Source: Fulvivirga imtechensis AK7
GTDB lineage: Bacteria > Bacteroidota > Bacteroidia > Cytophagales > Cyclobacteriaceae
NCBI RefSeq assembly: GCF_000331535.1
Contig: NZ_AMZN01000056.1
Coordinates: 1-49,307, forward strand
Length of the DNA stretch: 49,307 nucleotides
Reading direction: 5' to 3'
Position numbers and translations under genes: made by a program. Below, piece after piece: positions 9,778-49,217 of this stretch (positions are counted from its first letter, which is position 1; each line of letters starts with the position of its first letter). The notes under the pieces are model-generated. The model ran no database searches and was not told the DNA's origin. It worked only from the letters and a program-made list of their open reading frames with translations.

Positions 9778-9848
9778 AGGCGCTGAGCGGATTCGAACCG
9801 CTGTAAAAGGTTTTGCAGACCTCTGCCTAGCCACTCGGCCACAGCGCC
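9778..9848 (-). tRNA. tRNA-Cys (anticodon GCA)
   Basis: On minus a 71-nt cloverleaf can be drawn. The acceptor stem is GGCGCTG / CAGCGCC with discriminator U, the D-arm contains GAGTGGCTAGGC, the anticodon loop is CTGCAAA, and the T-arm has the canonical GGTTCGAATCC. The GCA anticodon reads Cys codons. CCA is not encoded, so it must be added after transcription. Confidence 0.96.
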
Positions 9849-12025: not shown

Positions 12026-14155
12026 TTATTTCTCTTCGTCTTTGCCTTCTTCCTTCTCTGCTTTAGCCTTATCAGCTTTAGCTTTGCCTTCCTCAGCTTT
12101 AGCAGTTGAAGTTTTACCTTCCGGCAACTCTTCTTCTACTTTCTCAGCTTTAGACTTCTGAGAATCATCTTTCTTACTCTTTTTCTCTTCTTTCACACCT
12201 TCTTCAGGGGTATTACCCTCCATTTTATCTTTAAGGGCGCTTAGCGCCTCAAGATCACCCAAGGTTGACTTTTCAGTATCGCTATTGATTTTGTTAACAG
12301 CGCTACCCTTGGCTTTCTTCTTGGGAGCTCCTGCCGCTGCTTTTGGTTTCTCTTCTGTTTTAGAGTAAACCGCACGGTGCGAAAGAATTATTCTCTTATC
12401 ATCTTTAGAGAATTCCTGAACTTTAAAATCTAAAGTCTCACCATTTTCTGCTTTAGAACCGTCTTCTTTTGTCAGGTTCTTAATAGAGCAGAACCCTTCG
12501 ATACCATACGGTAACTCAAGAGTGGCTCCTTTTTCATTTTGGTTGATAACAGTACACTTGTGAACTGACCCCGGAGTAAATACTGTCTCGAAAGTATCCC
12601 AAGGGTTCTCTTCAAGGTGCTTGTGGCTTAATGCCAGTCTCCTGTTTTCAACATCGAGCTCAAGAACTACTACTTCAAGCTCATCCCCAACTTTAACAAA
12701 CTCGGAAGGATGCTTGATCTTCTTAGTCCATGAAAGATCTGAAACGTGAACCAGGCCATCGATACCTTCTTCAAGCTCGATGAACAAGCCAAAGTTAGTC
12801 AGGTTTCTAACTACACCTTTGTGCTTGGTACCTACAGCATATTTTGTAAGTACATCCTGCTTAGTCCATGGATCTTCAGTCAGTTGCTTAATGCCCAACG
12901 ACATTTTTCTGTCATCTCTGTCCAATGTCAACACTACTGCCTCTAACTCATCACCAATGTTGATGAAGTCCTGAGGGTTTCTCAAGTGCTGTGACCATGA
13001 CATTTCAGATACGTGGATCAGGCCTTCAACGCCAGGCTGGATCTCCAGGAATGCACCGTAATCAGCCACGTTAACGATCTTACCTTTAACTTTTGACCCA
13101 ACATCAAGGTCTTTAGGAAGAGAATCCCAGGGATGAGCAGTAAGCTGCTTCATACCCAAAGAAATACGTTTCTTATCTTCATCAAAATCAAGAACAACTA
13201 CTTTCACGGTTTCGTCAAGGCTTAATACCTCTTCAGGGTGATTGATCCTACCCCATGAAATGTCTGTGATGTGAAGCAATCCGTCAACACCTCCCAGGTC
13301 AATGAACACACCAAAGTTGGTCATGTTCTTAATAGTACCTTCAAGTACCTGACCTTTCTCAAGGTTATTGAGGATCTCAGCTTTTTGTTCTTCAAGATCT
13401 TTCTCGATCAATACTTTGTGAGAAACAACTACGTTGTCGTTAGTATAGTTGATTTTCACTACTTTCACTTCCATTGCCTTATCAACGAACACATCGAAAT
13501 CTCTGATAGGCTTCACATCAATTTGTGAACCTGGCAAGAAAGCTTCAACACCATATATATCAACGATCAGACCACCTTTAGTTCTTCTCTTTACAAAACC
13601 TTCGATAACAGAATCGTTTTCGTAAGATTTAGTGATATTATCCCAGGCCTGAACGATCTTCGCCTTTCTTCTGGAAAGTACCAACTGACCGTTAGCGTTC
13701 TCCTGCTCTTCGATGAAAACTTCTACTCTGTCACCTACTTTCAGGTTTGGAAGATCTCTGAATTCAGTAGCAGATACTAAACCGTCAGATTTAAATCCGA
13801 TGTTAAGTATAACATCGCGATCGTTGATACCTACAACGGTACCTTCAACTACTTCTTTCTCCTCGATAGTTGTCAATGTATCTTCATACATTGAGGCCAT
13901 CTCATCTCTCTTCTTTTTGCTGTAGCCTTCGCCAAAACCTTTGGTCTCGAAAGCCTCCCAATCAAACTCTTCAGTCTTAGCTTCCTCTTTTTTAGCGGCA
14001 GCTTTTTTGGGTTTTTCTTCAGCTTTCACCTCTTCTTTTTCTTCAGCAGCGGCTTCGGCCTTTTCTTCTTTAGCAGCCTGTTCTGTAGTTTCAGTTGCTT
14101 CGTTTTTTGCAGAGTCTACGTTTTCTTCTGCTGCAGTATTTTTTTCTTTTGCCAT
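12026..14155 (-). CDS. rpsA: 30S ribosomal protein S1 (bS1)
   Basis: The protein has 709 residues from ATG 14155 (MAKEKNTAAEENVD); longer in-frame starts upstream are unlikely. Six S1 (OB-fold) domains are visible in order: VVEGTVVGINDRDVILNIG, IEGFVKRRTKGGLIVDIYG, LEGTIKNMTNFGVFIDLGG, VKGKIVNVADYGAFLEI, HKGVVRNLTNFGLFIEL and HKCTVINQNEKGATLEL. bS1 binds mRNA on the 30S subunit, which matters in Bacteroidota where Shine-Dalgarno pairing is little used. A Glu/Ala/Lys tail of about 75 residues at the N-terminus and one of about 120 at the C-terminus make it longer than the E. coli protein (557). AAGAGCAG lies just before the start. The gene is monocistronic with a strong terminator. Confidence 0.96.
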   Translation of the reverse strand: MAKEKNTAAEENVDSAKNEATETTEQAAKEEKAEAAAEEKEEVKAEEKPKKAAAKKEEAKTEEFDWEAFETKGFGEGYSKKKRDEMASMYEDTLTTIEEKEVVEGTVVGINDRDVILNIGFKSDGLVSATEFRDLPNLKVGDRVEVFIEEQENANGQLVLSRRKAKIVQAWDNITKSYENDSVIEGFVKRRTKGGLIVDIYGVEAFLPGSQIDVKPIRDFDVFVDKAMEVKVVKINYTNDNVVVSHKVLIEKDLEEQKAEILNNLEKGQVLEGTIKNMTNFGVFIDLGGVDGLLHITDISWGRINHPEEVLSLDETVKVVVLDFDEDKKRISLGMKQLTAHPWDSLPKDLDVGSKVKGKIVNVADYGAFLEIQPGVEGLIHVSEMSWSQHLRNPQDFINIGDELEAVVLTLDRDDRKMSLGIKQLTEDPWTKQDVLTKYAVGTKHKGVVRNLTNFGLFIELEEGIDGLVHVSDLSWTKKIKHPSEFVKVGDELEVVVLELDVENRRLALSHKHLEENPWDTFETVFTPGSVHKCTVINQNEKGATLELPYGIEGFCSIKNLTKEDGSKAENGETLDFKVQEFSKDDKRIILSHRAVYSKTEEKPKAAAGAPKKKAKGSAVNKINSDTEKSTLGDLEALSALKDKMEGNTPEEGVKEEKKSKKDDSQKSKAEKVEEELPEGKTSTAKAEEGKAKADKAKAEKEEGKDEEK

Positions 14156-14241
14156 TATTTCTGCTCTTTTATACATGCTACCCCAGAGCAATCAGGCAGC
14201 AAATTTGGTTGTTGATCATGTACTGACAAAAACAATACATG

Positions 14242-14271: not shown

Positions 14272-14347
14272 AGAAAAAATATTATTGTAAGCTAATACCG
14301 ATCAGCACAAAAGCGAGCAGGAAAGCGCAACCTGAATCATTGGTTAA

Positions 14348-14838
14348 TTATTGTTGATGAAGGGAATATCTTTTCACGGAACAAAGAATAACAACAAGCG
14401 CAAGTATAATAGTGTCTGTAAGAAAACTCACAACTCATCGTTATGGCGAACGAAGTGCGGCAATCCCGTGCATTAAGAGGGGATCGCTTCGATTCCTCCC
14501 CGTGGCAGGCGCGATGACGGCAAGAGTTTTCTTGCAGACACTAAATAACAGCCCGCCATCTTCCATACTCCTCTACACCCAAAGCGGTCAGGTGCAAAAA
14601 GACGGCCCCTGTCATTATTTCCCAGCGCAAGCAGGGCACCCAGCCAGGCGGTAGCAGGTACAAGCAGCAATACAGCCGCCACCAATTCTGCAACTCCTGA
14701 TCCTATTCTTCCCCACGGCTCCATGCCAATAGTCGTAAAGATATAAACGCTTTCAGCCGCCCCTGTAAACTTAAAATAAAGGGTTTGAAGAAGAATTACA
14801 GCGGCTACAATACGCGCGATCCAGGATGAAATTTTCAT
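14348..14838 (-). pseudogene. DoxX-family membrane protein gene, frameshifted and split by a MITE
   Basis: ATG 14838 opens a DoxX-like protein (MKISSWIARIVAAVILLQTL, then GRIGSGVAELVAAVLLLVPA). DoxX proteins are small four-helix inner-membrane proteins. At the third helix the frame breaks: after LLALG an extra base near 14618 shifts the family-like continuation IMTGAVFLHLTALGVEEY to the next frame, and a second extra base puts EDGGLLF into the third frame. The coding sequence then hits the MITE at 14412-14541. Beyond it, IILALVVILCSVKRYSLHQQ-stop continues exactly in the EDGGLLF frame when the element and one TA are removed. The remaining uninterrupted frame from 14838 to 14473 is therefore a broken product, not an intact gene. 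Confidence 0.85.
14412..14541. mobile_element. MITE, subfamily A, copy 1 (130 bp)
   Basis: Terminal inverted repeats are gtgtctgtaagaaaactc and its near-exact reverse complement (one mismatch), with TA on both sides (14410-14411 and 14542-14543). The interior carries cgaagtgcggcaatc and aggggatcgcttcgattcc, partly self-complementary and shared with 30865-31018. It encodes no protein. TA target duplication points to mobilisation by an IS630/Tc1-mariner-type transposase elsewhere in the genome (inference). Confidence 0.9.
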
Positions 14839-14855: not shown

Positions 14856-16211
14856 CTATTTCAGGTCCTCAAAAGACAGTGTTCCCGTGGAGTAATCTAA
14901 CAAAAGTTCCTGGAACATCAATGTGTATTTGGCTCTTGCAAAGTCCGTTTGAGCCTGTACCAGGTCCTGGTTGGCTTGCGTGTATTCCACCAGGTTAGAT
15001 ATGCCCAATTCATACCTTTCCCTTCCAAGCTCAAAGGAAAGTTCTGCTGCTTCCAACTGAGTTTGTGCCACTTGATATGTGGTAACCGCATCCTGCAAGT
15101 TTTGATAAGCCAGCAAAACCTGAGACTTTACCTGTAATTCAAGGTTTTCGACATCAAGAGCAGCATTTTCATAAGTCACTTTGGATTGCACCACATTAGA
15201 GCGTGTTAACAATCCGTTGAAAATCGGTATAGTGAAGCTTATTCCGTAAGTCTTTTGCACGTTATCCTCCAGAAACTGCTGCTCGAAATTTCGATTTGTA
15301 CCACCATGAATGTAGTTGTAAGCCGATCCATAATTAAAGAATGCGCTTATGGAGGGATAATAGTTACCCTTCATAGCCCTATAGTTGAATTCCATAGAAG
15401 ACTCATTATGTTTCGCTCCTGCAAGATCAGATCTGTTTTCCACCGCAATTGCATATAGTTCATCCGAGGAGACATTTGCATTTACCTCATTAACATTCCA
15501 GGCCGGCTCCTCAATGTTAAAGTTAATTAACGGATCGAGCTGAAGGGTTTGAGCGAGTTGCGCTTTATCATTTCTAAGAGCGTTTTTGGCTCTTAATAAA
15601 TTCAATTCGGCATTTTTCAACTGGTACTCCTGATTAGTAGCATCCACCGCAGCCCTACTGCCTGCTTCTACATGCAAATTGATCTGCTGTAACTGCGTCT
15701 GTTGAGTCTCCATGTTACGTTCAGCAATTTTAACCAGTTCAGTATCTAAAAGACATTGTAAATACCGCGTAGTCACCAGTTGGATAATATCCTCCTTGGT
15801 TCTCTCTACCGTTTCTATCTGCGCCTCAAATCTATACTTCGAAGCTTTATAACTATTTAATTGATTAAACCCCTGAAAAAGAGGCATTGATGCCCTGAAG
15901 GTTGCATTGGTAAAATCCAACAAACCGTTTACCACCCTACCTTCTTGTTGGTTGAAAGAATTTCCATCATTTCTGCCGGTGTTTCCGGTAATGGATAATG
16001 ACGGCCCCATCTGCAATAGATTAGAGGTCTTTGACATACTGGCACTGCTCAGTTGATTTTGTTGCTGCTTTAATGAAATATTATTTTCCAAGGCCAGCTT
16101 TACAGCCTCCTTAAAAGTAAGAGGAGAATCTATAGTAGTTCCTTCCTGCCCAAAAGCTGCTGAGCAGAGTAATACAATAAGTGTTGTTGTTAAACTTATC
16201 CTATTTATCAT
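14856..16211 (-). CDS. TolC-family outer-membrane efflux channel
   Basis: The protein has 451 residues from ATG 16211, which starts the signal peptide MINRISLTTTLIVLLCSAAF (cleaved before QEG). Starts further upstream would precede it with a charged 28-residue stretch and are unlikely. Two OEP repeats are visible, beginning LTFKEAVKLALENNISLKQQ and, in the second half, SDELYAIAVENRSDLAGAKH. Long coiled-coil segments (LQQINLHVEAGSRAAVDATN; VAQTQLEAAELSFELGRERY) fit the periplasmic alpha-barrel. TolC-like trimers form the exit duct for MacAB or RND pumps. It lies downstream of an ABC ATPase on the same strand (207-bp gap) and belongs to the efflux locus. Confidence 0.93.
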   Translation of the reverse strand: MINRISLTTTLIVLLCSAAFGQEGTTIDSPLTFKEAVKLALENNISLKQQQNQLSSASMSKTSNLLQMGPSLSITGNTGRNDGNSFNQQEGRVVNGLLDFTNATFRASMPLFQGFNQLNSYKASKYRFEAQIETVERTKEDIIQLVTTRYLQCLLDTELVKIAERNMETQQTQLQQINLHVEAGSRAAVDATNQEYQLKNAELNLLRAKNALRNDKAQLAQTLQLDPLINFNIEEPAWNVNEVNANVSSDELYAIAVENRSDLAGAKHNESSMEFNYRAMKGNYYPSISAFFNYGSAYNYIHGGTNRNFEQQFLEDNVQKTYGISFTIPIFNGLLTRSNVVQSKVTYENAALDVENLELQVKSQVLLAYQNLQDAVTTYQVAQTQLEAAELSFELGRERYELGISNLVEYTQANQDLVQAQTDFARAKYTLMFQELLLDYSTGTLSFEDLK

Positions 16212-16418
16212 GAGTATTAATTTAGTATTGAGATATGAGTATTGAGACTTTGGTACCACCTTGCTACTTTTTCTTTTTTTTTTAAAAGAACTCAAGACTC
16301 ACCATTATTTATTTTACCTATTGCTTCTGCCAACGTCCGATATTTATCTTCTACCTGCCCTGATCACAGCTATCGGGTTTGATATGGCATAGCTTTATGC
16401 CTATATCTTAAGTACTTC

Positions 16419-17256: not shown

Positions 17257-17313
17257 TTAACAAATAATAACGACAACTTTCAATCAGGTTAGTCGTTGGA
17301 GAAATAGTAATTA

Positions 17314-17460
17314 GGTCTCTAAGAAAACGCCAATGTCTGCAATACGCTTGCTCCAAAAATGCTCTTCCCGACAACTGTAGGGGACTCCGTTTTTGGGACT
17401 TCATCCCACTCTTTAGCGGGAACGTTTTCTTAAAGCCACTTAGAGTTTTCTTACAAGCAC
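17314..17460. mobile_element. MITE, subfamily B, degenerate copy (147 bp)
   Basis: The left end is ggtctctaagaaaacgcc. The right end has the two tandem gttttctta-type repeats seen in 32439-32579 and finishes cttacaagcac. Interior ccaaaaa/tttttgg arms can form a hairpin. The left flank has TA but the right flank has CA, so one end has decayed. Confidence 0.75.
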
Positions 17461-30864: not shown

Positions 30865-31018
30865 GTGCTTCTAAGAAAACTCGCAATGTATCGTCATTGG
30901 TAACGAAGTGCGGCAATCTCCTCTTCTTTTGGCGTGCATCAAGAGGGGATCGCTTCGATTCCTCCCCGTGGCAAGCCCGCGACAGGCGCGATGACGACAA
31001 GAGTTTTCTTATAGACAC
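30865..31018. mobile_element. MITE, subfamily A, copy 2 (154 bp)
   Basis: Ends are gtgcttctaagaaaactcg and the inverted cgagttttctt-like terminus (aagagttttcttatagacac), with TA on both sides (30863-30864, 31019-31020). The interior shares aagaggggatcgcttcgatt with copy 1 but has extra bases near the centre. It lies between the candidate enhancer and the activator gene. Confidence 0.9.
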
Positions 31019-31068: not shown

Positions 31069-32439
31069 ATGAAAACACCAGCCAATATACTTATAATAGA
31101 TGACGATAGGGATGTCCTGGAAACTGCAAGAATGTTTTTAAAGCAGGAATTTTCATCCGTAGATATTGAAGAAGACCCGGCAAAGATCCCCGGATATTTT
31201 GAGATCAAGGATTATGATGTCATTCTGCTCGATATGAACTTCAAAAAGGGAATGAATGATGGCGAAGAAGGTTTTCATTGGCTCGGAGAAATATTGAAGA
31301 TCGATGCACAGGCCATTGTTATACTCATTACGGCTTATGGTGAAGTGGATCTGGCGGTACAGGCTATGAAGCAGGGGGCCACTGATTTTGTGCTCAAGCC
31401 ATGGAAAAATCAAAAGCTGTTGGGCACTATCTTGTCTGCATTACAGCTTCGAAAGTCTAAAAAGGAAGTAGTGCGTCTGAAGGAAGCTCAGCATACGTTG
31501 GGCCGCGATGCCAGCCATAGCTTTGAAGATTTCATCGGCAAGTCCCCAGCTATACAACGGGTAAAAGACCTGATCAACAAAGTGGCTAAAACCGATGCGG
31601 ATGTATTGATCTTAGGGGAGAATGGAACCGGAAAAGAATTGGTAGCCCGCGCCATTCATCAGCGCTCCCTGCGCAATGAAGAGGTATTTATCAATGTAGA
31701 CCTTGGTGCCATAAGCGAAACACTTTTTGAAAGTGAACTATTTGGACACGTAAAAGGGGCTTTCACAGATGCCCGGCAAGATAAACCGGGTCGTTTCGAG
31801 CTGGCACACGAAGGCACCATATTTTTAGATGAGATCGGCAATTTATCTCTTCCATTGCAAGCAAAATTACTTACAGCTCTTCAAAGCCGAAGAGTAAGAA
31901 GGGTGGGTTCAAATAAGGAAATGGAAATTGACTTTCGGCTGGTCTGTGCCACTAATATGCCGCTTTACGATATGGTGTATGAACAGAAATTCCGGCAAGA
32001 CCTGCTTTACAGGATCAACACCGTGGAGATTAGAATGCCATCCCTCAAAGAAAGGATAGATGATATTCCTCTGTTAGTTGAACATTTTCTCAGGGTTTAT
32101 GCCAAAAAATATCAAAAACATCGCTTAAAGGTAAATGAACAAATTTTAGAGAAGCTAAAAAACTATCATTGGCCTGGAAACATTCGCGAACTGCAGCATG
32201 CTGTGGAGAGAGCTGTAATCCTTAGTGAGGAAGATACTATCAATTCTATTGAATCCTTCATCAGCCCAACCGCCACCACACACCGACCATTAACCCAGCC
32301 GAAAACCTTAGATGAAATGGAGCGTGATTTCATTCTTCAGTCGTTGGAGGAGCACAATGGTAACATAACCGCTACTGCCAAGACGCTTGGTTTGACCCGT
32401 ACAGCTCTTTACAGAAGAATGAATAAGCATGGAATCTAG
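31069..32439 (+). CDS. Sigma-54-dependent response regulator 1 (receiver-AAA+-Fis)
   Basis: The protein has 456 residues. The receiver domain (6-125) has the acidic pocket DDD, phospho-acceptor Asp55 in VILLDMNF, and Lys in VLKPWKN; it contains an extra KKGMNDGEEG loop. The AAA+ domain has Walker A GENGTGKE, Walker B TIFLDEIGNL and an R-finger region. The sigma-54-contacting loop reads GAFTDA where most activators have GAFTGA. A Fis-type HTH ends the protein (NITATAKTLGLTRTALYRRM). No kinase is adjacent. It is divergent from the permease operon and probably activates it. Its TAG stop is formed at the junction with a MITE (32439-32579). Confidence 0.94.
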   Translation: MKTPANILIIDDDRDVLETARMFLKQEFSSVDIEEDPAKIPGYFEIKDYDVILLDMNFKKGMNDGEEGFHWLGEILKIDAQAIVILITAYGEVDLAVQAMKQGATDFVLKPWKNQKLLGTILSALQLRKSKKEVVRLKEAQHTLGRDASHSFEDFIGKSPAIQRVKDLINKVAKTDADVLILGENGTGKELVARAIHQRSLRNEEVFINVDLGAISETLFESELFGHVKGAFTDARQDKPGRFELAHEGTIFLDEIGNLSLPLQAKLLTALQSRRVRRVGSNKEMEIDFRLVCATNMPLYDMVYEQKFRQDLLYRINTVEIRMPSLKERIDDIPLLVEHFLRVYAKKYQKHRLKVNEQILEKLKNYHWPGNIRELQHAVERAVILSEEDTINSIESFISPTATTHRPLTQPKTLDEMERDFILQSLEEHNGNITATAKTLGLTRTALYRRMNKHGI

Positions 32440-32579
32440 TGTCTTTAAGAAAACGCCATTATCTGAGTTATGCTCGTTCCAAAAATGCTCACGTACCTCA
32501 GTACGTTCCGCTTTTTGGCACTTCACAAGCCTTGACCTTAACGTTTTCTTAAAGCCACTGAGAGTTTTCTTATAGACAC
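32439..32579. mobile_element. MITE, subfamily B (141 bp)
   Basis: Left end gtgtctttaagaaaacgcc, right end two tandem inverted copies (cgttttcttaaagccact and gagttttcttatagacac), TA on both sides (32437-32438, 32580-32581). The centre forms a hairpin (acgtac / gtacgt, loop ctca) inside longer ccaaaaa / tttttgg arms. It fills the whole space between two convergent stop codons and could serve as terminator for both. Confidence 0.9.
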
Positions 32580-48785: not shown

Positions 48786-48804
48786 TCAAAGTACTAAAAT
48801 AAAA

Positions 48805-49210
48805 TACAAGCCGGCCTATCGTTCTCCGGGTTTCATCGGAGGAAGGAAAGTCCGGGCAACACAGAGCATCGTACTTCCTAACAGGAAGGTGCTGACGGCA
48901 GCGTCAGTAACAGAAAGTGCCACAGAAAATAAACTACCTTCGATAGCTATCGGGGGAAAAGGTGAAAAGGTGAGGTAAGAGCTCACCGCCCCGAGGGTGA
49001 CCAAGGGGGCATGGTAAACCTTACGAGTTGAAAGATCAAATAAGTCCCGCTAGCTGGTGTATCACCGGCTGTTAGGCTGCTCGTCTGATTTTCTTCGGAA
49101 ATAAGCGGGATGGGTAGATCGATAGATCCCTGTAGTGATACCGGGACCAGATAAATGATGGGCCATCGCGATTTACATCGGGAGGACAGAACCCGGCTTA
49201 CAGGCTTGTA
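48805..49210 (+). ncRNA. rnpB: RNase P RNA, bacterial type A
   Basis: The catalytic RNA of RNase P, which trims tRNA 5' leaders. The 5' tacaagcc pairs with the 3' ggcttgta (P1). The conserved P4 halves are visible: GAGGAAGGAAAGTCCGGGC near 48839 and AGGACAGAACCCGGCTTA near 49182. ATGGTAAACC near 49011 is the L15 loop that pairs with the tRNA CCA end. Total length about 406 nt fits. A T-run (49210-49217) follows P1 and should terminate the transcript. Ends are estimated to a few bases. Confidence 0.95.
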
Positions 49211-49217
49211 TTTTTCT

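What the first reader, a model, noticed from the sequence alone, without database searches (positions are those of the whole stretch)
14348..14838. MITE insertion caught inside a DoxX gene; removing it restores the frame
Deleting 14412-14541 plus one TA joins EDGGLLF to IILALVVILCSVKRYSLHQQ-stop in frame, exactly as the DoxX fourth helix should continue. This fixes the element's borders and its TA target duplication independently of comparison among copies. Two +1 shifts upstream show that the gene was already or later decaying.
Basis: seen in the sequence. Interest (0 to 1): 0.75.

Follow-up and report, generated by a model that had tools for sequence, protein, structure and literature searches.

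The report
Small jumping DNA in decayed gene
A 130-letter piece of selfish DNA, one of some hundreds of relatives in this bacterium, has jumped into the end of a small membrane-protein gene that is broken in other ways too; intact copies in sister species show where it landed and suggest that it copied about six letters of its landing site, not two.

Summary
The insertion is real. A 130-bp element with 18-bp inverted ends (14412-14541) interrupts a DoxX-family gene on the minus strand. Five of 14 held congeners carry an intact orthologue without the element; in three of them both neighbouring genes are closely conserved. Two claims need correction. (1) The target duplication is not TA: in 100 elements sampled from this genome 50 have a perfect 6-bp repeat, and where both flanks read TANNTA (53) the two inner bases agree in 47 (shuffled mean 13.6, maximum 22). 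(2) The tail KRYSLHQQ is out of frame; the orthologous tail KDIPFINNN lies in another frame behind roughly 20 missing bases. The gene is a multiply broken pseudogene. The element belongs to a large MITE family, roughly 200-330 copies by my estimate from end counts; its type of interior is absent from 37 sampled relatives. I did not find its transposase. An ordinary event, with a worthwhile open question about the enzyme.

The parts
14412..14541 (.). MITE, type A interior, 130 bp; most full-length relatives are 153-154 bp, this copy lacks 13 and 11 bases inside
14542..14547 (-). target-site duplicate on the gene's upstream side (TATTTA on the gene strand)
14407..14411 (-). target-site duplicate on the gene's downstream side, read as a 6-bp copy with one base lost (TATTA on the gene strand); inferred
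14344..14838 (-). doxX pseudogene (with the element inside it)
   Evidence: Pfam DoxX 23.1 bits, just under the cut-off 23.6; orthologues
14375..14406 (-). downstream part of the gene that reads LALVVILCSV, matching the orthologues
14344..14373 (-). orthologous C-terminal tail KDIPFINNN-stop, in a different frame from the segment before it
12026..14191 (-). S1-type ribosomal protein gene, downstream neighbour
   Evidence: PF00575, six stretches; 87-88% identical in G001, G008, G014
14856..16295 (-). outer membrane efflux protein gene, upstream neighbour
   Evidence: PF02321; 71-72% identical in G001, G008, G014
30865..31018 (.). second type A copy, 154 bp
32439..32579 (.). type B copy with the same ends, 141 bp
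17313..17460 (.). decayed copy with type B interior, 148 bp

Best explanation
14412-14541 is a non-autonomous transposable element (MITE). Shown: it is one copy of a family with conserved, slightly unequal inverted ends (GTGTYTSTAAGAAAAC), two main interiors between the same ends, and a 6-bp TANNTA target duplication; it sits in a doxX gene that three congeners keep intact between the same two neighbours. Inferred: a DDE-type transposase supplied in trans inserted the element into TATTTA near the 3' end of doxX, duplicating six bases, of which one was later lost on the downstream side. Shown: the gene also has two single extra bases and roughly 20 missing bases, so it is a multiply broken pseudogene. 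Not shown: which lesion came first, and which transposase moved the element.
For: Element and family. Duplication: 50 of 100 perfect 6-bp repeats, inner two bases equal in 47 of 53 with both flanks TANNTA; where the left pair is not self-complementary, 23 of 26 are direct repeats and 0 of 26 reverse complements. The same target rule in other genomes: 34 of 35 ends in G157, 7 of 7 in G497. Empty site: five intact orthologues, three with both neighbours closely conserved. Spacing: protein scores 52, 61, 58 for a 5-base duplicate against 41, 50, 47 for 2 bases, versus G008, G001, G014.
Against: At this site the two flanks agree in only 4 of 6 bases without a gap, so the 6-bp duplication here rests on the family rule plus one lost base. 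Whole-gene DNA alignment does not decide: 5-base join 346, 320, 333; 2-base join 343, 314, 336 (G008, G001, G014). 30 of the 100 sampled elements have two or more mismatches in the 6-bp repeat. No transposase with these ends was found, so movement in trans is inferred from the anatomy.
Confidence: 0.85

Rival explanations
1. One reading: a MITE with a 2-bp TA duplication (an IS630/Tc1-type habit; recalled), in a gene whose reading frame continues as IILALVVILCSVKRYSLHQQ.
For: TA does flank both ends, and the 132-base removal keeps the frame.
Against: The family repeat is 6 bp. No IS630 transposase domain (PF13358) was found in the own genome. All five orthologues have one residue fewer at the join, and the tail is out of frame.
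Confidence: 0.08
2. The doxX lesions are partly or wholly assembly or base-calling errors, and the gene works in the living strain.
For: The genome is a draft of 225 contigs; two of the lesions are single bases.
Against: A 130-bp diverged family copy with its own duplicate, and roughly 20 missing bases, are not typical base-call errors. I had no reads to check.
Confidence: 0.04
3. The element is not a transposon but a functional hairpin (for example a transcription terminator or regulatory RNA) that was kept at the gene's end.
For: It folds very stably and lies in the last part of the gene.
Against: Inverted ends with a flanking direct repeat in the family; absent from the five orthologous loci; it splits a segment conserved in the orthologues; no Rfam match in the window at that place or for a full-length copy with its flanks.
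Confidence: 0.03

Closest known systems
Prokaryotic MITEs (ERIC, RUP, Nezha, Chunjie and others; names recalled or from passages of PMC10969869)
   Same: Short, no transposase gene, inverted ends, target duplication, many copies, palindromic interior.
   Different: 6-bp TANNTA duplication and GTGTYTSTAAGAAAAC ends; I found no description of this combination in six library searches, which is weak evidence of absence.
IS630/Tc1-type MITEs with TA duplication (family habit recalled)
   Same: TA directly next to each end.
   Different: The duplication is 6 bp; no IS630 domain in the own genome.
Rickettsia palindromic elements (passages)
   Same: About 150 bp, palindromic, found inside genes.
   Different: Those described fuse in frame into host proteins; this one sits in a broken gene and ends its reading frame.
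IS1595-type insertion sequences
   Same: In G017 a decayed copy lies about 180 bp from a perfect end of this family.
   Different: No second end found there, and no IS1595 domain in the own genome; not counted as a link.

Membership tests
MITE | terminal inverted repeats | tested here: met
   18 bp with one difference; family ends
MITE | target-site duplication | tested here: met
   50 of 100 sampled elements perfect at 6 bp, 20 with one mismatch, 30 worse; at this site imperfect, 4 of 6 ungapped
MITE | multiple dispersed copies | tested here: met
   41 type A matches; 338 + 327 end motifs against 4 + 9 for the reversed motif
MITE | short and without a transposase gene | tested here: met
   130 bp here, 109-207 bp in the sample
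MITE | mobilised by a parent insertion sequence with the same ends | tested here: inconclusive
   no parent identified
IS630/Tc1-derived MITE | 2-bp TA duplication | tested here: not met
   6-bp duplication
IS630/Tc1-derived MITE | IS630 transposase in the genome | tested here: not met
   0 matches to PF13358 in the own genome; the draft may miss some
DoxX | match to the DoxX profile | tested here: met
   four of five intact orthologues pass the Pfam cut-off (27.1-30.3 bits against 23.6), G011 does not (20.5); the broken window frame scores 23.1
doxX orthologue at this locus | same place between OEP and S1 genes in congeners | tested here: met
   G001, G008, G014 at 71-72% and 87-88%; G011 at 45% and 71%; G007 OEP only in the stretch held; no DoxX match in the 80 more distant loci

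The most novel reading that the evidence does not exclude
The copies are the footprint of an undescribed insertion-sequence group whose transposase recognises GTGTYTSTAAGAAAAC ends, inserts only into TANNTA with a 6-bp duplication, and accepts unrelated interiors between those ends. The same ends and target rule appear in scattered members of this family of the Cytophagales and in one small-genome member of another family of the order.
Probability: 0.35. Interest if true: 0.5.

Novelty: new member of a known kind. Interest (0 to 1): 0.35.

Why it matters
The case shows how a broken gene and its orthologues can size a transposon insertion, and a pitfall: keeping the reading frame cannot separate duplications that differ by three bases. 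The family is a large expansion not seen in the sampled congeners, with a precise target rule, and the enzyme that drove it is a concrete open question.

Tried and rejected
Search for the parent element. IS630 (PF13358): 0 in the own genome. IS1595 (PF12762): 0 in the own genome, present in 4 of 7 genomes searched; the decayed copy in G017 has a perfect family end about 180 bp behind it but no second end was found. DDE_Tnp_1 (PF01609): one locus in the own genome, an ISAs1-like protein (name recalled), with no better than 4-mismatch resemblance to the ends in its flanks; in G042 an element end with one mismatch lies inside such a gene near a contig end. In G157, 39 matches to one end: 37 identical over 94-134 bp, one 99%, one only 48 bp; in the 29 loci I looked at the contig breaks within 257 bp inside the element, so the interior is missing. 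The longest reach shows only the last codons of a possible frame; other genomes of that genus gave nothing (1 of 7 matches, G157 itself). Viral contigs: 6 stretches match TANNTA plus the end exactly, all inside long reading frames and without a partner end, taken as chance. Plasmids and phages: no match at E 1e-5 for one query each.

Other tests. Do the two ends of an element agree more than chance, as a hairpin under selection might? No clear excess (position 20: 59 of 100, shuffled mean 50.2, maximum 59); positions 5, 7, 17 and 19 agree less than the shuffled mean, most strongly 7 and 19, so the two ends are unequal. Reverse-complement agreement of the two inner target bases is also above shuffling (24 of 53, maximum 21), but this comes from the self-complementary pairs (AT in 26): among non-self-complementary left pairs it is 0 of 26. 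A shared internal deletion with the other 130-bp copy (L020) was considered; the deletions differ.

Counting caveats. Loci for searches came from the 41 type A matches and from all but 11 of the roughly 100 sites that one search listed (of 665), which favours well-kept ends. (93 elements up to 520 bp) contains some mispaired long ones; one search keeps 90-220 bp only and drops elements with under 14 bp of flank. The 665 ends include inner end-like motifs of type B elements, so half of 665 overstates the number; the stricter motif gives 409 ends. In G497 the search required TA next to the end, so half of its TANNTA rule is built in.

Full report
What is there. The minus strand of 14838-14344 carries the remains of a small membrane protein of the DoxX family, between an outer membrane efflux protein gene (14856-16295) and an S1-type ribosomal protein gene (12026-14191), all on the minus strand. 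A 130-bp element, 14412-14541, with 18-bp inverted ends that differ at one base, lies near its 3' end. The element folds far better than shuffled sequence.

The gene in relatives. The first 73 residues of the window protein match one place in each of 5 of 14 held congeners, with open frames of 130 to 164 codons from stop to stop. In G001, G008 and G014 both neighbours are present at 71-72% (OEP) and 87-88% (S1); G011 has both at 45% and 71%; in G007 only OEP was seen in the 3.2-kb stretch held. None of the five has the element, and a search with the element found it in 0 of 37 relatives, the 14 congeners included. I did not look at the locus in the nine congeners without a match. In 80 more distant loci around S1 genes there was no DoxX match at E 1e-5, while 27 of 80 have an OEP match. 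Four of five orthologues pass the Pfam DoxX cut-off; G011 and the broken window frame do not.

The lesions. Downstream, LALVVILCSV matches the orthologues in one frame; then roughly 20 bases are missing (20 in the alignment to G008); then KDIPFINNN, the counterpart of the orthologous DIPF/IPY tail, follows in another frame. The order of events cannot be told.

The duplication. The family shows otherwise. Of 100 elements of 90-220 bp from this genome, 50 have a perfect 6-bp direct repeat at their borders, 20 one mismatch and 30 more; none has a perfect 7-bp repeat. Both flanks read TANNTA in 53; in 47 of these the two inner bases agree (shuffled mean 13.6, maximum 22 in 2000 shuffles). Where the left pair is not self-complementary, 23 of 26 are direct repeats and none a reverse complement, so this is a duplication and not just a symmetric target. 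An earlier, looser sample gave 40 of 93 perfect (shuffled mean 8.9, maximum 17 in 200). In other genomes 34 of 35 ends in G157 and 7 of 7 in G497 follow TANNTA (background 0.6% and 1.6%), and of 9 complete elements 5 have a perfect 6-bp repeat, 3 one mismatch and 1 three. At the doxX site the gene-strand repeats are TATTTA and TATTA, which I read as six bases with one lost; without a gap only 4 of 6 agree. Protein scores against G008, G001 and G014 are 52, 61, 58 for five bases and 41, 50, 47 for two. Whole-gene DNA scores do not decide: 346, 320, 333 for five, 343, 314, 336 for two, and 345, 316, 340 with nothing removed beyond the element.

The family. The end motif occurs 338 + 327 times in the own genome at up to two mismatches, against 4 + 9 for the reversed motif. 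Some of these are inner end-like motifs: one lies exactly 21 bp from an outer end in 49 of 70 type B elements and in 0 of 25 type A elements. With a stricter motif there are 409 ends. I estimate 200-330 elements. Of the 100 sampled, 25 have the interior of this copy (type A), 70 another (type B), 2 both and 3 neither. Among pairs of the same type and similar length, median identity is 0.87 (A, 216 pairs) and 0.83 (B, 960 pairs); the closest pair is at 0.987. The expansion as a whole is therefore not very recent. The stricter motif occurs in 24 of 295 genomes of the family sample, in numbers only in the own genome (409), G157 (44) and G042 (37); a related motif without mismatch occurs in 2 of 390 genomes of the order sample, the own genome and G497 (that sample did not hold G157 or G042).

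Mechanism. Ends, duplication and copy number fit a non-autonomous element moved in trans by a DDE transposase that inserts into TANNTA. That step is inferred: no transposase with these ends was found (see Tried and rejected).

Literature. Six searches listed no paper whose title or abstract start describes such elements; only listings were seen, except passages of the review PMC10969869. This is weak evidence that the family is undescribed.

Verdict. The stated target duplication and the C-terminal reading are wrong in detail. The event is ordinary; the family and its missing transposase are the part worth following.

Noticed in passing
window 32439-32579: A type B copy begins on the last base of the stop codon of the 456-aa regulator gene 31069-32439, so the element supplies that base.
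   Followed up: no
window 30865-31018 and 17313-17460: Two further family copies, in gaps between the long reading frames around them.
   Followed up: partly
L067 15763-16229: A 467-bp family member holds what looks like another inverted-repeat element (arms CATAGCCGTTAACTTAAG) flanked by CCAAAGGGC twice; a similar arm appears near the start of contig C68 in L214.
   Followed up: no
type B elements: A second end-like motif sits exactly 21 bp inside one outer end in 49 of 70 type B elements and in 0 of 25 type A elements.
   Followed up: partly
G157, loci L114 and L116-L143: Many nearly identical element ends sit where contigs break, as if a longer or very uniform repeat were missing from the assembly.
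   Followed up: partly
L347 (G042, contig C5) position 1787: A family-like end lies inside a DDE_Tnp_1 transposase gene near the contig end.
   Followed up: partly
window 48803-49216 and 9778-9848: Class A RNase P RNA and a tRNA gene.
   Followed up: no
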